From Fibrobacter sp. UWB10 (GTDB lineage: Bacteria; Fibrobacterota; Fibrobacteria; Fibrobacterales; Fibrobacteraceae), in contig NZ_FXUE01000003.1 in assembly GCF_900182935.1 (NCBI RefSeq), positions 124,001-188,000 of the forward strand: 64,000 nt of DNA, read 5' to 3'. Of the stretch, positions 11,287 through 52,794 are shown one piece after another. Position numbers and translations under genes: made by a program. Numbering within the stretch: position 1 is the stretch's first letter; each line of letters starts with the position of its first letter. Below the pieces are notes generated by a model. It made no database searches. It saw only the letters and a program-made list of their open reading frames with translations, and was not told the origin of the DNA.

Positions 11287-11853
11287 CTACGCTGCGTTTC
11301 GGACGGTCAGCATCGGCAGCGAGTAGCCTTTTTCAAATAGTTTGTTGAACACGTTGAAGCATTTGCGAAAGCAGGCGAACCGTTTTTCGCATTCGGTTAC
11401 ATCGCCGTAAACTTTCCAGTAGCCCGTATATTTGCTATTCCTGCCGCCGTTGATAATGAACCCTTTCACGTCTTCGAGGGGGTAGCCCAAGAAAAGTCCG
11501 ACTTCGTGCGGAAAACAGTGGCATTTGCGGATGCGCGCCGTCATGTATGCGAGTGCACAGTCGGTGCTAAAGTCTGTGTAGCCGTAGGCGGCGAGAAAAT
11601 GGCGGATTTCCGGCTCGGCAATAAGCTTTTGCAGGGCGTCTTCGCGATAGACGTAGATAAAACTGCGACCGCAGCGTTCTGCGATAACGCGCACGCACAC
11701 GCCGCGAGGGTTGAGTTCCTTGTTCCAGTGGGCGAGTTGTTTGCACAGCGTTTCGCTGGGTGAAGATTCCATGCAGAATAGGCTTCCGACCTTGAGCCCA
11801 GCGAGTGTTGGTGCGCATTGGCGAACGAGACGGTGATCTAAAAGACGGTTCAT
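11287..11853 (-). CDS. DUF3793 family protein
   Basis: A 188-residue cytoplasmic protein that I recognise as DUF3793 from its layout: an N-terminal CAPTLAGLKVGSLF, a central FIYVYREDALQKLI, then CHCFPHEVGLFLGYPLEDVKGFI and YTGYWKVYGD before a Cys-containing helix. No biochemical function is known. In many anaerobes members of this family sit beside a flavodoxin and iron transporters, exactly as here (flavodoxin 41 bases downstream). It has no clear Shine-Dalgarno site. The promoter at 11900-11929 has two DtxR-like boxes, so it is likely expressed under iron limitation. Confidence 0.8.
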   Translation of the reverse strand: MNRLLDHRLVRQCAPTLAGLKVGSLFCMESSPSETLCKQLAHWNKELNPRGVCVRVIAERCGRSFIYVYREDALQKLIAEPEIRHFLAAYGYTDFSTDCALAYMTARIRKCHCFPHEVGLFLGYPLEDVKGFIINGGRNSKYTGYWKVYGDVTECEKRFACFRKCFNVFNKLFEKGYSLPMLTVRNAA

Positions 11854-11883: not shown

Positions 11884-11935
11884 TTAGATTTCTCTAACAA
11901 ATATACAAAAAAGCCTTGAAGTTTGTCAAGGCTAA
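11884..11935 (-). promoter_or_regulatory. Iron-type promoter with two TTAG-N6-CTAA-like boxes
   Basis: Minus strand: TTGACA (11929-11924), 18 bases, TATATT (11905-11900). A perfect box TTAGAGAAATCTAA (11897-11884) follows the -10, and a one-mismatch box TTAGCCTTGACAAA (11935-11922) covers the -35. The -35 lies inside the terminator hairpin of the upstream ABC operon. Confidence 0.7.
11906..11933 (-). terminator. Terminator of the AraC-ABC operon
   Basis: Minus strand stem AGCCTTGA / TCAAGGCT (11933-11926 and 11919-11912), 6-base loop, then a run of T. It starts about 10 bases after the ABC stop codon at 11943. Confidence 0.75.
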
Positions 11936-35999: not shown

Positions 36000-36017
36000 A
36001 ATAAACCTCTAAAACTT

Positions 36018-36050
36018 AATATATCTTATTACTGCGACAAAAGATGTCGC
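36018..36050 (-). promoter_or_regulatory. WYL-type promoter site of the WYL gene itself
   Basis: Palindrome GCGACA-N5-TGTCGC (36034-36050). On the minus strand TTGTCGCAG, 8 bases, TATATT (36023-36018), 19 bases before the ATG. This suggests autoregulation. Confidence 0.65.
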
Positions 36051-36108
36051 GATGCTTCTGCTTTTGCGTTTTTTTGGTGAAAAATGTAGGACAACTTGAA
36101 TAGTAAAC

Positions 36109-36145
36109 AAAAATGCCCCTGCTCAGAGCTACTTGAGCGGGGGCA
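36109..36145 (-). terminator. Terminator hairpin inside a divergent intergenic region
   Basis: 12-base stem with one wobble (TGCCCCCGCTCA / TGAGCAGGGGCA on the minus strand), 8-base loop, then TTTTTG. No protein gene lies upstream on this strand, which implies a short non-coding transcript. Confidence 0.65.
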
Positions 36146-36240
36146 CCTTTATTCCCAAAGAGACACAAAAGAGGGAATTGGATTTTTTGATTCAACCTAG
36201 CAAGCCCGCATCTGAATGCTATGGCAACAATCAGAGTTAG
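36109..36240 (-). ncRNA. Candidate iron-regulated small RNA
   Basis: About 130 bases on the minus strand between two perfect TTAG-N6-CTAA boxes (36237-36250 and 36258-36271, 21 bases apart) and the terminator at 36145-36109. No open frame of note. The boxes are 150 or more bases from the DtxR-type gene on the other strand, so they may serve this transcript. The promoter itself is weakly defined. Confidence 0.35.
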
Positions 36241-36271
36241 ACTTGGCTAACTAAAAGTTAGATAAAACTAA
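36237..36271. promoter_or_regulatory. Two DtxR-like boxes, 21 bases apart
   Basis: TTAGACTTGGCTAA (36237-36250) and TTAGATAAAACTAA (36258-36271). Both fit TTAG-N6-CTAA exactly. Confidence 0.65.
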
Positions 36272-36323
36272 CTACAAAAACAAGGGCAAAATCGCGAAAA
36301 TAATGTAAATTTTTTTTATAATA

Positions 36324-36408
36324 TTAGTTTAATCTAAATAAATACGCTTCCTATAATAATTTTAGCCTTGCCTAATTAGATTTATTAAACTATATTAGCC
36401 GCGTCTAA
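36324..36408 (+). promoter_or_regulatory. Promoter with three DtxR-like boxes for the regulator-feo operon
   Basis: Boxes at 36324-36337, 36362-36375 (TTAGCCTTGCCTAA) and 36395-36408 (TTAGCCGCGTCTAA), all perfect. TTGCCT (36368-36373) inside the second box and TATATT (36391-36396) touching the third are 17 bases apart and form a promoter that a bound repressor would block. Confidence 0.75.
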
Positions 36409-36423
36409 ATAAGGCTGGTTAAA

Positions 36424-36861
36424 ATGGACCATACGAAACTAACTCAAAGTTTAGAAGACTACTTGGAAATGGTGCACATGTTGCGCTTGGCGAACGGGCT
36501 TGCCCGCGTCAAGGATATTGCGGCGGCTCTTGCCGTGAAAATGCCGTCGGTCGCAAAGGCCATGGTTGAACTCAAGAAGATGGGCCTTGTAAGGCAGGAA
36601 CCCTACAGCGGTGTAGAACTCACCGAAGAGGGCGAACGCGTTGCCGCCATGATTTTGAACCGTCATATTCTTCTGAAGGGATTCCTGATTAAGCTGGGCG
36701 TGTCCGAGGCGATTGCCGATAAGGATGCCTGCAGTATGGAACATATTCTTTCGGCAGAAACGCTCGGTAAGATTGAAGATTTTGTGAAACCGTCGAATGC
36801 GATTGCCTCGGCAAAAGTTTCTTCGGTGAAAAAACTAAGGGTTGTCAAAAACACAAAGTAA
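36424..36861 (+). CDS. DtxR/MntR-family metalloregulator (copy 1)
   Basis: A 145-residue regulator. The N-terminal winged HTH (SLEDYLEMVHMLRLANGLARVKDIAAALAVKMPSVAKAMVELKKMGLV) and the dimerisation/metal domain (GERVAAMILNRHILLKGFLIKLGVSEAIADKDACSMEHILS) match the DtxR family; the Cys, Glu and His residues of DACSMEH correspond to the metal site. There is no SH3-like third domain, so the length is that of MntR-type members. It heads an operon with feoA and feoB and has perfect boxes in its promoter, so it very likely represses iron uptake when Fe2+ is plentiful. Close paralogue at 49773. Confidence 0.92.
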   Translation: MDHTKLTQSLEDYLEMVHMLRLANGLARVKDIAAALAVKMPSVAKAMVELKKMGLVRQEPYSGVELTEEGERVAAMILNRHILLKGFLIKLGVSEAIADKDACSMEHILSAETLGKIEDFVKPSNAIASAKVSSVKKLRVVKNTK

Positions 36862-36909: not shown

Positions 36910-37194
36910 ATGAGCTGTAATTGTGGTTGCGGCGGAAAGTCGCAAACGAAAAAGTGGAGTACCGAGCCCAAGTTCTCGGAACTCAAAAAGGGCGACAAGG
37001 TGGAAATCGTCGGCTATAACGAAGGCGATTCTCGCTACAAGTCCAAGCTTCTTTCGATGGGGCTTGTGCGTGGCGTTCAGATCGAAGTCTTGCAAGCTGC
37101 CCCGCTCGGCGATCCGATCGAAGTGGCCGTGCTTTCTTATAGACTCTCGCTCCGTAAAGAAGAAGCGAACGTGCTCAAGCTGAGGAGGGTATAA
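36910..37194 (+). CDS. feoA: FeoA-like protein with Cys-rich N-terminus (copy 2)
   Basis: A 94-residue FeoA with a good GAGGA ribosome site. The FeoA core runs from FSELKKGDKVEIVGYN to EANVLKLRRV and is nearly identical to that of copy 3 at 50204. It has an extra head, MSCNCGCGGKSQ, with three cysteines in five residues that could bind iron or another soft metal; copy 3 lacks it. Cytoplasmic partner of FeoB. Its stop overlaps the feoB start by one base (TAATG). Confidence 0.9.
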   Translation: MSCNCGCGGKSQTKKWSTEPKFSELKKGDKVEIVGYNEGDSRYKSKLLSMGLVRGVQIEVLQAAPLGDPIEVAVLSYRLSLRKEEANVLKLRRV

Positions 37195-39941
37195 TGGCTG
37201 CTAGAAAACTTTTGACGATTGCTATTGCCGGTAACCCGAACTGCGGTAAGACGGCTCTCTTTAACGCCCTTACGGGTGCCCGTCAGCATGTGGGTAACTG
37301 GCCCGGCGTGACTGTCGAAAAGAAAGAAGGTTATTTTGAACTGGGTGACCGTCAGATTCGCCTGGTGGACCTTCCGGGTACTTACGCTCTGTTCGCAAAT
37401 GCCGAAGACGAACGCGCTGCTGTCGATTACTTGCTTAGCCGCGAAGCAAGCTTGATCATCAACATCGTCGATGCCACGAACCTGGAACGTAACCTGTTCC
37501 TCACGAGTCAGCTTGCCGATATGCATATCCCGATGGTGATTGCCGTCAATATGATGGATATCGCCGAAAATCGTGGAATCCAGCTGGATCTCGATGAGCT
37601 TTCTGACGTTTACGGCGTGCCGTGCATTCCGCTTTCCGCTGTGAGCGAAAAGAGCGTCACCAATTTCATTAGCCAGATGGGCCATGTGCTGGCATCTCCG
37701 ATGCCGCTCCCGAAACAGATGGTTTATGGTGACAAGATTGAAGAAACCGTTAAGGTCTTGGAACCGAAGGTGGCTCCGGTCGCAAAGCTCTTGGATGCGG
37801 ACGCTCGTTGGGTTTCGCTCATGTATTTGGGCAACCAAAACAGCTATGCCGACAAATTTGCCGAAGCTGGCGTGAAGATTAACAAGGCTGACGTTACAAA
37901 GATTCTTGGTGAAGAACCGGAATTTGCAATGGCCGAAAACCGCTATTCCATTTCGCACAATGTGGCTGGCAAGGCAATTGTCGCTGCACGCGAGAAGAAG
38001 ACCTTCTCGGATAAGCTTGATGCTGTGCTTTTGAACCGCTGGGCGGCGCTCCCGATCTTCCTTGTCATCATGTATTTGGTGTTCTGGGTAGCAGTCACTA
38101 TCGGTTCTGCATTCATTGATTTCTTTGATGTACTGTTTGGTGCAATTTTTGTGGACGGTCTCGGCTACGTGCTCACGGATGTTCTCCATGCGCCGGGCTT
38201 TGTGTCCGCTATTCTCGCCGACGGTATCGGTGCCGGTATCCAGACGGTTTCGACCTTCATTCCGGTCATCTTCTTCATGTTCCTGTGCCTTTCGTTCTTG
38301 GAAGACTCGGGTTACATGGCTCGTGCCGCTTTCGTTGCAGACCGCTTCATGAGATTCCTTGGCCTTCCGGGTCGCGCCTTCGTGCCGATGATGGTGGGCT
38401 TTGGTTGCGGCGTGCCTGGCATTATGGGCTCTCGCGTGCTGGAATCCAAGCGTGAACGTTTCCTCACCATCTTCTTGGTGCCGTTCATGAGCTGCGGCGC
38501 TCGCCTTCCTGTGTATGCGCTGTTCGCTGCTGCATTCTTTGGCAAGATGGCTGGCACGGTCGTGTTCCTGCTTTACCTTGCTGGTGTATTGTTCGCTGTT
38601 GCTTACGGTCTCTTCTTGAAGAAGTCCCTGTTCCAGGGCCAGGCCAGCAACTTTGTGATGGAACTTCCGCCGTATCACTTGCCCAAGTTCAAGTCCCTGA
38701 TGATTCACTGCTGGCAGCGCCTGCGCGACTACATCTGGCGTGCTGGTAAGGTGATTACGCTTGCCGTTGCAATACTTGGCTTCCTCAACAGCTTCGGCAT
38801 TGTGGAGAAGTCTGTGGACGAAAATGCTCCGGCCGATGAACCGGCAGGTTTTGAATTTACAGCCGGTAACGGGGATTCCGAAAATAGCTTGCTCTCTGTA
38901 ATCGGTAAGGCGATTACGCCGGTGTTCGAACCGTTCGGTGTCGAAAAGGAAAACTGGCCGGCCTCTGTGTCCTTGTTCACGGGTCTTTTGGCCAAGGAAG
39001 CCGTTATCGGTACCATGAATTCGCTGTATTCTATGGCGGGTGAAAATGCAGAAGCTCCTGCAGAAGAGCCGAAGGCAGAAGAACCTGCTGCAGAAACTCC
39101 GGCTGCTGAAGCCCCGGCTCCGGAACAGGTTGCCGCTGTTGCTGACAGTGCCGCTGCTCCTGCAGAAGCTGCCGAAGCACCTGCTGAAGAAAAGGCTGAA
39201 GAAGAAAAGGTGCTTATCGCCGGTGTAGACGAATGCCCCGCCGAAGAAGAGGAAGAAGGTGGCGCTCCCGATATCAAGGGTGCCGTACTTGAAGCTCTCG
39301 GCTCGATTCCGGCAAATCTCTCTGAAGTCATCGGCTCGCTTACCGACATTCTCGGAACCGCCGGTGAATTGGAAGGCCAGGAAGCTGCCGAACTCAAGAA
39401 AGAAACTCTCGACAAGATTACTGATGCCAAGGTGCTGACCTGCGAAGAATTTGCTGCCATCGCTACCTTCGGCGAAGAAGAAGAGGATGAAAAGACCCGC
39501 GAAGCCGTGTTCGAAAAGCTCGCTGCTGCTGGCATCACGCTCGACGAAGACGAAATGGGTGCTCTCGAAGAAGGCGACCTTTCCGAAACCGCCGACATCT
39601 ACGCTAACCTCCGCTCTTACTTCCACAATCCGGATAAGAACGGTAACCCGGTGGATGGCTTTAACTGGCAGGTGTTCGCATTCCTCATCTTTATCTTGCT
39701 CTATGTACCTTGCCTTGCTGCAATGGGTGTCGTAGCCCGTGAAATCGGCCTCGGCCTTGCTATCCTTATGGCAACGGTTCAGACGATTCTTGCTTGGGCT
39801 GTGGCTGTTCTCCTTTACCAGGTGCCGGTTGGAGGCGATACCAAGTGGATTGTTGCCGCTATCGTGGCTCTTGTGGGTACGGGAATCTTCCTCAAACTCT
39901 TCGGCATGAAGGCTAATAAGGAAAAGAGATTCGAAGACTAA
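37194..39941 (+). CDS. feoB: FeoB ferrous iron transporter with long acidic insert (copy 2)
   Basis: A 915-residue FeoB, longer than the usual 700-780. The G domain has GNPNCGKTALFN (G1), DLPGTYAL (G3) and NMMD (G4). The permease carries gate motifs GFGCGVPGIMGSR and PFMSCGARLPVY, and AKEAVIGTMNSLY. After this point, residues about 616-815 are an insert rich in Glu, Ala and Pro (repeats like PAEEPKAEEPAAE), ending just before the final helices FAFLIFILLYVPCLAAMG. E. coli FeoB has a shorter loop at the same place. Imports Fe2+ across the inner membrane. Third gene of the DtxR-feoA-feoB operon. Confidence 0.93.
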   Translation: MAARKLLTIAIAGNPNCGKTALFNALTGARQHVGNWPGVTVEKKEGYFELGDRQIRLVDLPGTYALFANAEDERAAVDYLLSREASLIINIVDATNLERNLFLTSQLADMHIPMVIAVNMMDIAENRGIQLDLDELSDVYGVPCIPLSAVSEKSVTNFISQMGHVLASPMPLPKQMVYGDKIEETVKVLEPKVAPVAKLLDADARWVSLMYLGNQNSYADKFAEAGVKINKADVTKILGEEPEFAMAENRYSISHNVAGKAIVAAREKKTFSDKLDAVLLNRWAALPIFLVIMYLVFWVAVTIGSAFIDFFDVLFGAIFVDGLGYVLTDVLHAPGFVSAILADGIGAGIQTVSTFIPVIFFMFLCLSFLEDSGYMARAAFVADRFMRFLGLPGRAFVPMMVGFGCGVPGIMGSRVLESKRERFLTIFLVPFMSCGARLPVYALFAAAFFGKMAGTVVFLLYLAGVLFAVAYGLFLKKSLFQGQASNFVMELPPYHLPKFKSLMIHCWQRLRDYIWRAGKVITLAVAILGFLNSFGIVEKSVDENAPADEPAGFEFTAGNGDSENSLLSVIGKAITPVFEPFGVEKENWPASVSLFTGLLAKEAVIGTMNSLYSMAGENAEAPAEEPKAEEPAAETPAAEAPAPEQVAAVADSAAAPAEAAEAPAEEKAEEEKVLIAGVDECPAEEEEEGGAPDIKGAVLEALGSIPANLSEVIGSLTDILGTAGELEGQEAAELKKETLDKITDAKVLTCEEFAAIATFGEEEEDEKTREAVFEKLAAAGITLDEDEMGALEEGDLSETADIYANLRSYFHNPDKNGNPVDGFNWQVFAFLIFILLYVPCLAAMGVVAREIGLGLAILMATVQTILAWAVAVLLYQVPVGGDTKWIVAAIVALVGTGIFLKLFGMKANKEKRFED

Positions 39942-40012: not shown

Positions 40013-40026
40013 TTAGATTTGTCTAA
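40013..40026 (+). promoter_or_regulatory. DtxR-like box upstream of the porin promoter
   Basis: TTAGATTTGTCTAA, perfect, with arms extended to AATTAGA / TCTAATT. It lies 25 bases upstream of the sigma-54 promoter of the porin-like gene. Confidence 0.65.
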
Positions 40027-40051
40027 TTTGTGAAACTAAACTGAAACATCT

Positions 40052-40067
40052 TGGCACGCATTTTGCA
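40052..40067 (+). promoter_or_regulatory. Sigma-54 promoter of the porin-like gene
   Basis: TGGCACGCATTTTGCA matches the -24/-12 consensus TGGCACG-N4-TTGCW exactly, about 108 bases before the ATG. Confidence 0.85.
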
Positions 40068-40174
40068 ATAATAGCACACAGAAGGCGATAGCCAAGCGTT
40101 TTTGTAGCACTATTTGTAAAAAACCTGACGGAGTGTTACAAAAACAGAAAATAAATCCGTCAAGGGAGAGAAAA

Positions 40175-41575
40175 ATGAAGAATCGTTTGACGTCTAATCT
40201 TTTGTTCGGCCTTGCCGCCGCTTCCTTCTTTGCAGTGTCTGCATTTGCTCAGGAAGCCGCCCCTGCCGCCGAAGCCCCCGCTGCAGCCCCTGTTGCTGAA
40301 GCTCCTGCTGCAGCCCCTGCTGAAACTCAGGCCGCTCCTGCTCAGGAAGCCCCTGTCGTCGCTCCGGCACAGGAAACACCGGCTGAACAGCCTGTCGCTG
40401 CCGCTCCTGCTGAAGAAGAAAAATCCGCTGAATCTGCTCCTGCTGAAAATACAAACCCGGGCGAAGTGGCCGACGCTGCCGGTAACGCTTTCGACATGCT
40501 CAAGGCCAGCATGAGCGAAGGTACTTCTGAAGCCAAGATGGAAGTTAAGTATAATGGCGAAGTTGAATTTGACATCTACACGGGCAATGTCTTGGAAGAT
40601 GAAGACCTGAACCATTCCTATGCTTCTACCTTTGACCTGAATTTTGAAGTCAAGTTCAATGAAAAGTGGTCTGCTTTCGTGGGTCTTGAAGCCGATGGTG
40701 AAACGACGGATCCGTTTGCCATTTACAATGGTGCCTACATTCAGTATCAGCCGGCTGAATTCTTCGCCGTCAAGCTGGGTGACCTGACCTTCTCGGAAGG
40801 TGCATTTGTTGCCTACTATGACTACGATGATCCTGCTGACAATGCTGCTGGCATGAAGGAACATGATATCCGTGGTTTTGAAATTGACTTGGCTGGCTTT
40901 ATTCTTGGCTTTGGCTTTGGTCGTGGCGGTAACGACTGGGCCGACGAAGATGGTGCCAAGGTTTACGATGTCCACGCCGCTTACGAATTCGACTATGCCG
41001 GTCAGCACTTGCGTCCGTATGTGGACTACAAGAGCTTCCAGACCACTCAGCATAACGAACTCCATGCCGGTGTAGAAGCGGGCCTCTCTCTCGGTGGCTT
41101 TGGCTTCAGGGCTGTGTATGGTTTCCATGCTGATTACCTGATGGACGACGGTGATGTCGTGGAAGGTCAGGACTGGACTTCTACTGCCCACGCCTTCTTG
41201 GTTGAGCCGACTTTCGAAGTGGGTATGTTTGATATCAAGACGACTGCCTTCTACGCCCTCATCGACAGAGGTGATGCAGCCGAGGATGCTAGCGACCTTG
41301 ATAACGGCGAAATCCCGGAATACTTCTTCCTGTACGCCGAACCGGCTTTCAAGTTTGCTGAATTCATCAAGGTTGGCATTCCTGTAGAATACCACACGCA
41401 CACTTTGGATGATGATGACGATACCGCTGCTACGTTCGATGTCGGTGCCCGCGTCTACATCACTCCGGTCGAAAACCTGGAAATCACCGCTTTCGGCATG
41501 GTGGATGTTGCCGTGCAGGATAACGAAGACGATGACGCTCTGCGTTTCGGTCTTGAAACGGTGTACAGCTTCTAA
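40175..41575 (+). CDS. Porin-like outer-membrane beta-barrel protein
   Basis: A 466-residue secreted protein. Start at the ATG at 40175 behind AAGGGAGAG; an upstream GTG in frame is not convincing. Signal peptide ending SAFAQ (about residue 25), then a Pro/Ala/Glu-rich tail (repeats of PAAEAPAAAP, residues about 26-105), then a barrel domain with alternating aromatic strands (DIYTGNVL, YIQYQPAEFFAVKLGDLTF, FGLETVYSF at the C-terminus). Strongly acidic overall. Probably an outer-membrane channel; substrate unknown. It has a sigma-54 promoter plus a DtxR-like box, an unusual combination, and follows the feo operon on the same strand. Confidence 0.75.
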   Translation: MKNRLTSNLLFGLAAASFFAVSAFAQEAAPAAEAPAAAPVAEAPAAAPAETQAAPAQEAPVVAPAQETPAEQPVAAAPAEEEKSAESAPAENTNPGEVADAAGNAFDMLKASMSEGTSEAKMEVKYNGEVEFDIYTGNVLEDEDLNHSYASTFDLNFEVKFNEKWSAFVGLEADGETTDPFAIYNGAYIQYQPAEFFAVKLGDLTFSEGAFVAYYDYDDPADNAAGMKEHDIRGFEIDLAGFILGFGFGRGGNDWADEDGAKVYDVHAAYEFDYAGQHLRPYVDYKSFQTTQHNELHAGVEAGLSLGGFGFRAVYGFHADYLMDDGDVVEGQDWTSTAHAFLVEPTFEVGMFDIKTTAFYALIDRGDAAEDASDLDNGEIPEYFFLYAEPAFKFAEFIKVGIPVEYHTHTLDDDDDTAATFDVGARVYITPVENLEITAFGMVDVAVQDNEDDDALRFGLETVYSF

Positions 41576-49686: not shown

Positions 49687-49734
49687 TTAGCCTTTACTAA
49701 TTAGCCGTGGCTTTCTAAATTTAGCGTTGACTAA
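49687..49734 (+). promoter_or_regulatory. Promoter with two DtxR-like boxes for the third feo cluster
   Basis: Boxes TTAGCCTTTACTAA (49687-49700) and TTAGCGTTGACTAA (49721-49734), both perfect. TTTACT (49693-49698), 17 bases and TAAATT (49716-49721) form the promoter. Same plan as at 36362. Confidence 0.7.
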
Positions 49735-49772
49735 TATATAAGGTGTGTTTTTCGTCTAATCGGAGCCGTCCT

Positions 49773-50192
49773 ATGGAACAAGTAAAGTTAAGCCAGAGCC
49801 TTGAAGACTACTTGGAAATGGTGCACATGCTGCGCCTTGCGAACGGGATTGCCCGTGTCCGCGACATTGCGGCGGCGCTCAAGGTCAAGATGCCGTCGGT
49901 TGCCAAGGCGGTAATCGAACTCAAGAAGCTGGGCCTTGTGACGCAGGAACCGTACAGCGGCATCGAACTCACGTCGGAAGGTGCGCTTGTGGCGTCCCAG
50001 ATTCTGAACCGTCACATCCTGCTGAAGGGTTTCCTGATTAAGCTCGGTGTGTCCGAGGCGATTGCCGACAAGGATGCCTGCTGCATGGAACACATTCTTT
50101 CGGCGGAGACTCTCGAGAAAATCGAGGAATTTGTGAACACGCCCAATGAATCGGCGAAAAAGCCGAACGCCGCTAAATCTAAGAAAAAGTAA
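49773..50192 (+). CDS. DtxR/MntR-family metalloregulator (copy 2)
   Basis: A 139-residue close paralogue of the regulator at 36424, with the same HTH (MPSVAKAVIELKKLGLV) and the same metal domain ending DKDACCMEHILSAETL; the Ser before Met in copy 1 is Cys here. I start at the ATG at 49773 with GGAG upstream, matching copy 1; a GTG ten codons earlier is in frame. The tail is Lys-rich (AKKPNAAKSKKK). First gene of a regulator-feoA-feoB operon. The two regulators probably recognise the same box and could cross-regulate. Confidence 0.92.
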   Translation: MEQVKLSQSLEDYLEMVHMLRLANGIARVRDIAAALKVKMPSVAKAVIELKKLGLVTQEPYSGIELTSEGALVASQILNRHILLKGFLIKLGVSEAIADKDACCMEHILSAETLEKIEEFVNTPNESAKKPNAAKSKKK

Positions 50193-50203
50193 ATCGTTGG
50201 TGT

Positions 50204-50443
50204 ATGAATAACGAACCGAAGTTTTCGGAACTAAAAAAAGGCGACAAGGCCGAAATTATTGGATACAACACGGGTGATTCTCAATACAAGTCCAAACTTT
50301 TGTCGATGGGGCTTGTGCGTGGCGTGGTGCTGCAGGTTTTGCAGGTGGCTCCGCTCGGCGACCCGGTCGAGGTGAGCGTGCTTTCGTACAGGCTCTCGCT
50401 CCGCAAACAAGAAGCCAATGTGCTCAAGTTGAGGAGAGTCTGA
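50204..50443 (+). CDS. feoA: FeoA-like protein (copy 3)
   Basis: A 79-residue FeoA, FSELKKGDKAEIIGYNTGDSQ through EANVLKLRRV, nearly identical in its core to copy 2 but without the cysteine-rich head. Follows the regulator by 11 bases and overlaps feoB by one base (TGATG). Cytoplasmic accessory of FeoB. Confidence 0.9.
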   Translation: MNNEPKFSELKKGDKAEIIGYNTGDSQYKSKLLSMGLVRGVVLQVLQVAPLGDPVEVSVLSYRLSLRKQEANVLKLRRV

Positions 50444-52794
50444 TGCCTATCGAGAAAGAAGTTTTCACGATTGCGATTGCAGGCAATCCGAACTGCGGAA
50501 AGACGGCGCTCTTTAACTCGCTTACCGGCTCGAACCAGATTGTGGGCAACTGGCCTGGCGTGACTGTCGAAAAGAAGGAAGGCCAGTTCAAGCTCGACAA
50601 CCACACGATTCGCGTGGTGGACTTGCCGGGTATTTACGCGCTGTTTGCGAATTCTGAAGACGAACGCGCCGCTCTCGATTACTTGCTCAAGGGCGAGGCG
50701 GACCTGGTCGTGAACATTCTAGATGCTACGAACCTGGAACGCAACCTGTTCCTCACGAGCCAGCTGATGGAAAAGGGCGTGCCGATGGTCTTGGCGGTGA
50801 ACATGATGGATATCGCGGCGAGTCGCGGCATCCATGTGGACCTGCACAAGCTCGAAGAAATTCTCGGCGTGACGGCGATTGGCCTTACGGCGGTTTCGCC
50901 CAAGAGCTGCGAAGGATTCGTGAACGACTTGCACAAGTTGCTGCATAACAGCCGCGAGCTTCCGCTCCCGAAGGCGGTCAAGCATTCCGAAGTTCTGGAA
51001 AAGCTGATTGAAGAAATTGCGGTGCCGCTCAAGCCCGTAGCCGACAAGCTTGGCGCAAGCCCGCGCTGGACGGCGGTGCAGTACCTGGAGCATAGCGGGC
51101 GAGTGCAGGAACTTGCCGACGAACTCGGTGTCGAAATCCCGCACGACAAGATTGAAGAAGACTTGGGCGAAGAGGTGGAATTTGCACTGGCCGATTCCCG
51201 CTACTCCTATGCCCGCGACATCGCGAAGGCCGTCATCCGCGACAATACTACCAAGCGCACGCGGACCGACAAGCTCGACAAACTATTTCTGAACCGTATT
51301 CTAGGAATACCGCTTTTCCTTATTGCCATGTATCTGGTGTTCTGGTTTGCGGTGAAGGTCGGCAGCGCGTTCATCGATTTCTTCGACATCCTGTTCGGCG
51401 GAATTTTCGTGGACGGAATGACGGAACTTCTGACGAAGATTGGTGCGCCGGGCGTTGTCGTGGCGCTGTTGGCGAACGGCATCGGTACGGGTATCCAGAC
51501 GGTATCGACGTTCATACCTGTCATTTTCTTCATGTTCCTTTGCCTTTCGTTCCTCGAGGATTCTGGCTACATGTCGCGTGCGGCGTTTGTGGCGGATCGC
51601 TTTATGCGGTTCCTCGGGCTCCCGGGAAAGGCTTTCGTGCCGATGATCGTTGGCTTTGGCTGTTCGGTGCCGGCGCTCATGGGCACGCGTACGCTCGAAA
51701 ACAAGCGCGAAAGGTTCCTTACTTTGTTCTTGGTGCCGTTCATGAGTTGTGGGGCGCGCCTTCCGGTGTATGCGCTATTTGGTGCGGCTTTCTTCGGCGA
51801 AAGCGCAGGCACGCTCGTGTTCGGGATTTACCTGACGGGCATCGTGATTGCGCTGATTTACGGCCTGCTCTTGCGCCATACGGTTTTCATGGGCAAGGAA
51901 TCGACGTTCATCATGGAACTGCCGCCTTACCATTTGCCCAAGGCGCGTAACCTTTTCCGTCACGCATGGCTCCGCCTCAAGGAATTCGTTTTCCGCGCGG
52001 GCAAGGTCGTGCTCATTATGGTGACGGTGCTCGGCTTTATGGGCTCCGTCGGCACGGACGGAAGTTTCGGCAACGACAACAACGAAAAGTCGGTGCTGAG
52101 CGCCGTGGGAACGGTGATTACGCCGGTGTTCGAACCCTTCGGTGTTGAACGCGACAACTGGCCTGCATCTGTCGCGCTCTTTACGGGGCTCTTCGCGAAA
52201 GAGGCGATTGTCGGAACGCTCAATTCGCTGTATGCCATCGAGGGCACGGGCGACGCTGACGCTGCTAACGCTGCCGAAAAAGCGGAGGAGGCGGGCGCGC
52301 TTGCTGCTGCCGACGCGGCCCCGGAAGAAACTGCCGCGGACGAAGGCTTTAGTCTGAAATCGACGGTGAAAGAAGCTCTCGTGAGTGTCCCGGCGAACCT
52401 GGTAGAAGTCTTTACCTCGATTGCAAACCCGCTGGGCGTCAAAGATGCCATCGATGAATCCGAAAGTGCCGGGAACGAAGGGGCGTACAAGACGATGCAG
52501 GCGCATTTCAATCTCGGGCGTTTTCAGGTGCTGGCCTACCTGCTGTTCATCTTGCTCTATGTGCCGTGCCTTGCCGCCATGGGAACCGCCTTCCGCGAAC
52601 TCGGGCGCTTCTACGGAACGCTCATGATGGTTTTCCAGACGGTTATCGGCTGGAGTCTCTCGGTACTGTTCTTCCAGGTGACCTGCGGGCATTCTACCGC
52701 ATGGATTTTCACCTCGGTGGTACTCCTCGCCGGTGTGGTCGTGAGCCTCGTGCTGATTGGCCGTGACCAGCGCAAGAAGAAAGTGTTCGAATAA
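50443..52794 (+). CDS. feoB: FeoB ferrous iron transporter (copy 3)
   Basis: A 783-residue FeoB. G domain: GNPNCGKTALFNSLTG, DLPGIYAL, NMMD. Permease: GFGCSVPALMGTR and PFMSCGARLPVY, AKEAIVGTLNSLY. The loop after this (about residues 596-688) has an Ala/Glu-rich part and then FSLKSTVKEALVSVPANLVEVF, shorter than the 200-residue insert of copy 2 and close to the E. coli length. Its coding sequence is more GC-rich than that of copy 2 while the proteins are alike, so they diverged some time ago. Imports Fe2+; end of the third feo operon. Confidence 0.93.
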   Translation: MPIEKEVFTIAIAGNPNCGKTALFNSLTGSNQIVGNWPGVTVEKKEGQFKLDNHTIRVVDLPGIYALFANSEDERAALDYLLKGEADLVVNILDATNLERNLFLTSQLMEKGVPMVLAVNMMDIAASRGIHVDLHKLEEILGVTAIGLTAVSPKSCEGFVNDLHKLLHNSRELPLPKAVKHSEVLEKLIEEIAVPLKPVADKLGASPRWTAVQYLEHSGRVQELADELGVEIPHDKIEEDLGEEVEFALADSRYSYARDIAKAVIRDNTTKRTRTDKLDKLFLNRILGIPLFLIAMYLVFWFAVKVGSAFIDFFDILFGGIFVDGMTELLTKIGAPGVVVALLANGIGTGIQTVSTFIPVIFFMFLCLSFLEDSGYMSRAAFVADRFMRFLGLPGKAFVPMIVGFGCSVPALMGTRTLENKRERFLTLFLVPFMSCGARLPVYALFGAAFFGESAGTLVFGIYLTGIVIALIYGLLLRHTVFMGKESTFIMELPPYHLPKARNLFRHAWLRLKEFVFRAGKVVLIMVTVLGFMGSVGTDGSFGNDNNEKSVLSAVGTVITPVFEPFGVERDNWPASVALFTGLFAKEAIVGTLNSLYAIEGTGDADAANAAEKAEEAGALAAADAAPEETAADEGFSLKSTVKEALVSVPANLVEVFTSIANPLGVKDAIDESESAGNEGAYKTMQAHFNLGRFQVLAYLLFILLYVPCLAAMGTAFRELGRFYGTLMMVFQTVIGWSLSVLFFQVTCGHSTAWIFTSVVLLAGVVVSLVLIGRDQRKKKVFE

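What the first reader, a model, noticed from the sequence alone, without database searches (positions are those of the whole stretch)
36109..36271. Candidate RyhB-like small RNA under iron control
A terminator with TTTTTG on the minus strand (36145-36109) lies in a region between two divergent genes, where no protein transcript should end. About 100 bases upstream on that strand are two perfect iron boxes 21 bases apart. A short, iron-repressed non-coding RNA is the simplest explanation.
Basis: inference. Interest (0 to 1): 0.6.

Follow-up and report, generated by a model that had tools for sequence, protein, structure and literature searches.

The report
Iron-sparing small RNA in Fibrobacter
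Next to its ferrous-iron uptake genes this rumen bacterium (Fibrobacter) carries a conserved, metal-controlled small RNA whose exposed loop matches the translation start sites of many iron-containing enzymes, so it probably switches those enzymes off when iron is scarce, as RyhB does in E. coli.

Summary
A minus-strand terminator (36145-36109) and two perfect TTAG-N6-CTAA boxes (36237-36250, 36258-36271) lie between a WYL gene and dtxR-feoA-feoB. The box occurs only 21 times in the 3.48 Mb genome, five of them within 172 bp here. The block is conserved in 33 of 80 Fibrobacter genomes. Conservation stops at the terminator and the gene beyond it varies (WYL in 8 of 29), so this is a stand-alone ~140-nt RNA, not a WYL leader. 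It folds into a 5' stem-loop with compensatory changes, a hairpin with an invariant GUGUCUCUUU loop, and a terminator. In the window's genome the loop complement, RGAGACAC just before a start codon, marks 11 genes; six are iron enzymes or their operons (nuoA, class I fumarase, nifH, sdhC, PFOR, an Fe-S-type flavoprotein). One-base control motifs gave 0 of 15. In other genomes superoxide dismutase and sulfite reductase also carry it. Fumarase and nuoA sites were seen only in genomes with the RNA. Best read as a functional analogue of RyhB, not a homologue, under a DtxR/MntR-type repressor. Transcript, metal response and repression are untested, and some sites (sdhC, PFOR) also exist in genomes without the RNA.

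The parts
36109..36248 (-). sRNA gene, about 140 nt (5' end inferred at ~36248)
   Evidence: Conserved block in 33/80 genus genomes; 141-nt fold z = -3.2; start inferred from conserved promoter and 5' stem-loop
36278..36283 (-). -35 element TTGTTT, inside conserved CCCTTGTTTTT (36276-36286)
   Evidence: TTG[TC][TC]T in all 32 sRNA-bearing loci with the block, constant 17-bp spacer
36255..36260 (-). -10 element TAACTT
   Evidence: TAACTT in 31 of 32 loci; weak match to TATAAT
36258..36271 (.). distal DtxR-type box TTAGATAAAACTAA, overlapping spacer and -10: the main operator
   Evidence: Perfect box in 31 of 32 loci
36237..36250 (.). proximal box TTAGACTTGGCTAA, overlapping the inferred +1 and forming part of the 5' RNA stem
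   Evidence: lost as a box in one subgroup while the RNA stem is kept
36199..36248 (-). 5' stem-loop of the RNA
   Evidence: 5 pairs with changes on both sides in an alignment not fitted to the structure
36219..36225 (-). invariant GCCATAG at the apex of the 5' stem-loop
   Evidence: Invariant in all aligned copies
36151..36178 (-). seed hairpin ATTCCC-(16-nt loop)-GGGAAT
   Evidence: TTCCC/GGGAA stem kept in all 20 aligned sequences; loop sequence invariant
36160..36166 (-). seed GUGUCUC in the loop; complement GAGACAC at target ribosome-binding sites
36109..36145 (-). intrinsic terminator with T-run
36324..36408 (+). facing dtxR-feoAB promoter region with three boxes (36324, 36362, 36395); -35 TTGCCT 36368, -10 TATATT ending 36396
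36424..36861 (+). DtxR/MntR-family metalloregulator, probable repressor of the sRNA
   Evidence: Pfam PF01325 and PF02742; MntR best PDB match
36910..39941 (+). feoA (36910-37194) and feoB (37194-39941), ferrous iron uptake
   Evidence: Pfam FeoA, FeoB_N, Gate, FeoB_C

Best explanation
The minus strand at about 36248-36109 encodes a ~140-nt trans-acting small RNA. When metal (most likely Fe2+) is plentiful, the DtxR/MntR-type repressor made by the facing gene binds TTAGN6CTAA boxes over the sRNA promoter and over the dtxR-feoAB promoter and shuts off both. When iron is scarce both are released: Feo brings in iron, and the sRNA presents its invariant loop UUGUGUCUCUUU. The loop pairs with RGAGACAC(A) at the Shine-Dalgarno/start region of mRNAs for iron-rich enzymes (complex I, class I fumarase, succinate dehydrogenase/fumarate reductase, PFOR, nitrogenase iron protein, sulfite reductase, Fe/Mn-SOD family) and blocks their translation, sparing iron. 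Shown here: sequence, boxes, conservation, structure, target-site distribution. Inferred: transcription and its start, repressor binding and metal, pairing and repression.
For: 1) Box rarity and clustering. 2) The block is conserved in 33/80 genomes beside the same dtxR and stops at the terminator, while the gene beyond differs (WYL in only 8 of 29). 3) Conserved TTGTTT-17-TAACTT promoter overlapped by the distal box. 4) Structure: z = -3.2; 98.1% of cells paired against 94.7% in shuffles and 27-53% in slid controls; 6 pairs with changes on both sides. 5) The loop GTGTCTCTTTGGG is invariant in all copies found by pattern. 6) In the window's own genome AGAGACACAA occurs 4 times outside the sRNA locus; 3 of the 4 directly precede start codons: nuoA, class I fumarase, an acyl-CoA ligase. 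RGAGACAC before a real gene start: 6 of 11 are iron enzymes or their operons, against 0 of 15 for one-base control motifs, Fisher p = 0.002 (Pfam; NCBIfam). 7) Four other sRNA+ genomes carry 16 such iron-gene sites, four sRNA- genomes 6. 8) Fumarase site 6/22 sRNA+ vs 0/26 sRNA- (p = 0.006); nuoA 10/24 vs 0/31 (p = 7e-5).
Against: No transcript, binding or repression data. sRNA-positive genomes are mostly one clade, so the Fisher p-values overstate independence. Two sRNA-negative genomes (G034, G041) also have GGAGACAC at sdhC and PFOR, one of them also at a rubrerythrin, and G047 has it at nifH, so some sites predate or do not need this RNA. Counted without regard to gene starts, the 8-mer near ATG is not enriched in sRNA+ genomes (4.4 vs 3.8 per genome). 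Several seed-bearing genes are not iron genes (folD, rplJ, acyl-CoA ligase). Many sRNA+ genomes lack the fumarase or nuoA site. The regulator's closest solved relatives are Mn-sensing MntR, so the metal is not certain.
Confidence: 0.78

Rival explanations
1. The terminator is an attenuator or riboswitch in a long leader of the WYL regulator gene (35999-34971), which would be the real iron-controlled gene.
For: The WYL gene is 110 bp downstream on the same strand in the window.
Against: Only 8 of 29 conserved copies have WYL downstream; elsewhere there is a convergent P-type ATPase or other genes in either orientation, while the RNA up to the T-run stays conserved. No Rfam riboswitch matches.
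Confidence: 0.04
2. It is a real metal-regulated sRNA, but its direct targets are few or different (for example it pairs through GGUUGAA or GCCAUAG, or binds a protein); RGAGACAC at iron-enzyme starts mostly reflects shared ancestry of ribosome-binding sites.
For: GGTTGAA and GCCATAG are as invariant as the loop; sdhC and PFOR have the motif in two genomes without the sRNA; no overall genome-wide excess of the 8-mer.
Against: Iron-gene enrichment over matched control motifs and restriction of the fumarase and nuoA sites to sRNA-bearing genomes.
Confidence: 0.13
3. The system answers manganese rather than iron (MntR-type regulator), the sRNA being part of a manganese-scarcity response.
For: Closest solved relatives and NCBIfam matches are MntR; the N-terminal Asp/Glu metal ligands of MntR are aligned with identical residues.
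Against: The operon encodes FeoA/FeoB, an Fe2+ transporter; a Cys replaces MntR's Glu99, as in DtxR (ligand numbering from general knowledge); candidate targets are iron enzymes.
Confidence: 0.08
4. The region is only a bidirectional operator plus a fortuitous hairpin, with no stable RNA.
For: Terminator-like hairpins of this kind are expected by chance in this region.
Against: Compensatory changes and an invariant non-operator loop in about 30 genomes.
Confidence: 0.03

Closest known systems
RyhB (Enterobacteria, Rfam RF00057)
   Same: Metal-regulator-repressed short RNA with a terminator; predicted targets overlap the known RyhB set (sdhC operon, fumarase, nuo operon, Fe-SOD), by pairing at ribosome-binding sites
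   Different: No sequence or Rfam match; repressor is DtxR/MntR type, not Fur; lies beside dtxR-feoAB; Hfq dependence unknown
MrsI (Mycobacterium tuberculosis)
   Same: ~100-nt iron-sparing sRNA with an IdeR (DtxR-family) box in its promoter and a 6-nt seed (PMC8628891)
   Different: Different phylum and sequence; reported targets hypF, bfrA, fprA; not reported beside feoAB
FsrA (Bacillus) and IsrR (Staphylococcus)
   Same: Iron-sparing sRNAs whose single-stranded pyrimidine-rich regions pair with Shine-Dalgarno/start regions of Fe-S enzyme mRNAs (PMC9410917)
   Different: Fur-controlled, C-rich motifs, unrelated sequences; here the seed is GUGUCUC in one hairpin loop

Membership tests
RyhB (RF00057) | Match to the Rfam covariance model | tested here: not met
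   No gathering-threshold match in the window; no RyhB hit even at E up to 10 for 36000-36430
RyhB (RF00057) | Fur box in promoter | tested here: not met
   Boxes are TTAGN6CTAA, shared with the adjacent dtxR-feoAB promoter; the adjacent regulator is DtxR/MntR family
RyhB (RF00057) | Hfq-dependent action | not testable with these tools
   Needs an experiment; hfq gene not searched
Iron-sparing sRNA (functional class: RyhB, PrrF, FsrA, IsrR, MrsI) | Short RNA with its own promoter and terminator, separate from neighbouring genes | tested here: met
   Computational only:
Iron-sparing sRNA (functional class: RyhB, PrrF, FsrA, IsrR, MrsI) | Promoter under an iron-responsive repressor | tested here: inconclusive
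   Operator boxes shared with dtxR-feoAB; binding and metal not shown
Iron-sparing sRNA (functional class: RyhB, PrrF, FsrA, IsrR, MrsI) | Conserved exposed seed complementary to translation starts of iron-enzyme mRNAs | tested here: met
   6/11 vs 0/15 in controls, and related genomes
Iron-sparing sRNA (functional class: RyhB, PrrF, FsrA, IsrR, MrsI) | Induced by iron limitation and represses those mRNAs | not testable with these tools
   Needs Northern blot / RNA-seq and target assays

The most novel reading that the evidence does not exclude
The first iron-sparing sRNA of the Fibrobacterota, controlled by a hybrid MntR-like DtxR protein and acting through one 7-nt loop seed matched to a recurrent ribosome-binding-site word (RGAGACAC) carried by central fermentation and nitrogen-fixation genes. 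The word is present at sdhC and PFOR even in genomes without the sRNA, so the RNA would have arisen late in rumen Fibrobacter and exploited a pre-existing shared Shine-Dalgarno word, with further targets (fumarase, nuoA, sulfite reductase) then gaining it repeatedly.
Probability: 0.35. Interest if true: 0.75.

Novelty: new member of a known kind. Interest (0 to 1): 0.62.

Why it matters
No small RNA of Fibrobacter was found in the papers searched. A RyhB-like response here would mean iron-sparing sRNAs evolved again in a deep phylum, under a DtxR/MntR-type rather than Fur repressor. It would link iron supply to succinate production, PFOR, complex I and nitrogen fixation in a dominant rumen cellulose degrader. 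Because the RNA is present in some species and absent in close relatives, the birth of an sRNA regulon and its target sites can be followed directly.

Tried and rejected
Rfam at gathering and permissive thresholds: no credible match. WYL-leader attenuator: rejected by changing downstream genes. Peptide coding: no conserved ORF; non-triplet indels between copies. A shorter RNA from a TAGNNT -10 (about 107 nt) was considered; it lacks a plausible -35 and would cut off the conserved 5' stem, so the upstream promoter is preferred. Genome-wide count of AGAGACACN{1,12}ATG, sRNA+ vs sRNA-: no difference, probably because many such hits are not at real gene starts; inspection of real gene starts was needed. 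A second GTGTCTC hairpin found by pattern is a terminator behind a Cys-rich leader peptide, unrelated. Duplex energies for candidate targets are circular, as targets were picked by the seed, and are not used as evidence. A diverged copy of the RNA beside dtxR in sRNA-negative genomes: none found.

Full report
OBSERVATION. The box is rare: 9 in the window against 0.54 expected and 21 in the entire 3.48 Mb genome. Five lie within 172 bp here (two on the sRNA side, three in the dtxR-feo promoter), two precede a second dtxR-feoAB operon (49687, 49721) and one precedes the porin-like gene after feoB (40013). The hairpin by itself would not be remarkable (8 such sites found, 6.5 expected).

STAND-ALONE RNA. 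The 200-bp block is found in 33 of 80 genomes of the genus, beside the same dtxR homologue in the loci examined. Alignment shows that conservation ends at the T-run. The sequence beyond is WYL in only 8 of 29 copies; in the others it is a convergent P-type ATPase or one of several unrelated genes in either orientation. This argues strongly against a WYL leader or attenuator and makes the block its own transcription unit. A covariance model found no further clear copies in the family beyond these Fibrobacter genomes.

PROMOTER AND OPERATOR. Every copy with the block keeps CCCTTG[TC][TC]TTT, and 17 bp after TTGTTT the hexamer TAACTT (31 of 32). In the window these are 36278-36283 and 36255-36260 on the minus strand. 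The distal box (36258-36271) sits on the spacer and -10 and is perfect in 31 of 32 copies. The proximal box (36237-36250) overlaps the inferred start (about 36248) and is lost in one subgroup, where the RNA stem it forms is nevertheless kept. The start site is inferred, not measured.

STRUCTURE. The 141-nt RNA from that start folds with z = -3.2, better than a 107-nt version from a later start (z = -2.2). In nearly all of the 28 distinct sequences the model gives a 5' stem-loop with GCCAU in or beside the apical loop, a linker with GGUUGAA, a hairpin UUCCC...GGGAA carrying the loop ...UUGUGUCUCUUU, and the terminator. On a MAFFT alignment not fitted to structure, RNAalifold finds the same. 98.1% of cells form standard pairs against 94.7% in shuffles and 27-53% when the partner is slid; 23 cells in 6 pairs change on both sides (shuffle mean 7), five of those pairs in the 5' stem-loop. 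The loop GUGUCUCUUU is identical in every copy found by pattern.

TARGETS. The complement AGAGACACAA occurs four times in the window's own genome outside the sRNA. Three of the four stand directly before start codons: nuoA (first gene of a complex I operon), a class I (Fe-S) fumarase and an acyl-CoA ligase. Widening to GAGACAC 1-13 nt before ATG gave 25 places, of which 11 are real gene starts, all RGAGACAC: nuoA, fumarase, nifH, sdhC (followed by the flavoprotein gene), pyruvate:ferredoxin oxidoreductase, a flavoprotein with a CxxCxxCx5C motif, and five without known iron (folD, rplJ, acyl-CoA ligase, a TSCPD protein, an unknown). Families; sdhC was recognised by sequence and operon, as no Pfam model matched, and folD and rplJ by sequence alone; the Fe-S nature of the flavoprotein is from its motif. 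Control motifs with the central C replaced (RGAGA[AGT]AC) gave 15 gene starts and none of them a recognisable iron enzyme: 6/11 vs 0/15, p = 0.002; 5/11 still p = 0.007.

COMPARISON ACROSS GENOMES. In four other sRNA+ genomes the same search gave 16 iron-gene starts: sdhC in 4 of 4, sulfite reductase in 4 of 4, PFOR, Fe/Mn-SOD family, rubrerythrin-like, fumarase, nifH, flavoprotein. In four sRNA- genomes it gave 6: sdhC 2, PFOR 2, nifH 1, rubrerythrin 1. For two orthologues the upstream regions were read or searched in more genomes: AGAGACAC before fumarase in 6 of 22 sRNA+ and 0 of 26 sRNA-; before nuoA in 10 of 24 and 0 of 31. The fumarase sites have differing flanks, suggesting repeated gain. 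Caution: sRNA+ genomes are mostly one clade, so these are not independent observations, and a crude genome-wide count shows no excess.

MECHANISM. The simplest account is metal-DtxR repression of two facing promoters, released together when iron is low: Feo uptake on one side, translational silencing of iron-rich enzymes by loop-to-Shine-Dalgarno pairing on the other. The repressor belongs to the DtxR family, closest to MntR among solved structures, with MntR-like Asp/Glu N-terminal ligands but a Cys where MntR has Glu99 (ligand roles from general knowledge of MntR and DtxR). Its place beside feoAB and the iron-enzyme targets favour iron as the signal, but this is inference.

KNOWN RELATIVES. 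No Rfam family matches, and no paper in the library describes such an RNA in Fibrobacter. It is an analogue of RyhB, PrrF, FsrA, IsrR and MrsI, which themselves share neither sequence nor synteny with IsrR (PMC9410917). MrsI, with an IdeR box, is the precedent for DtxR-family control (PMC8628891). The novelty is a new, independent member of a known functional class in a phylum where none was found described.

Noticed in passing
window 49687-52794: A second dtxR-feoA-feoB operon (DtxR paralogue, ~78% identical to the first) with two TTAGN6CTAA boxes in its promoter but no sRNA beside it.
   Followed up: partly
window 40013-41575: A single TTAGN6CTAA box precedes a porin-like outer-membrane protein gene just after feoB; probably a further member of the regulon, perhaps an iron-entry porin.
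   Followed up: no
window 11884-11897: A TTAGN6CTAA box in the intergenic stretch before the gene ending at 11853 (minus strand); gene function not examined.
   Followed up: no
L369, L371, L374, L378 (around the GTGTCTC hairpin, about position 1220-1530): A short leader peptide rich in cysteine (such as MTTNFANMCCWCCCRCRAGD) followed by a terminator, upstream of a sulfhydrylase/cystathionine-type PLP enzyme: looks like cysteine-codon attenuation in Fibrobacter.
   Followed up: partly
L023, sRNA region: One genome carries a 20-bp tandem duplication CGGGCTTGTCTGGTTGAAGC inside the sRNA, doubling the 3' arm of the 5' stem and the GGUUGAA motif.
   Followed up: no
L406 (and L455, L456, L458): Contigs labelled Clostridia, Kiritimatiellae or Prevotellaceae carry this Fibrobacter-type dtxR (L406 also the sRNA), so these are probably mis-binned or mislabelled metagenome bins.
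   Followed up: no
L126-L185, upstream of fumarase and nuoA: 5' regions of Fibrobacter genes are full of fast-changing low-complexity repeats (CAACCTATAACC, GTCTTTCGTCTCTCGTC), so ribosome-binding-site surroundings turn over quickly between close relatives.
   Followed up: no
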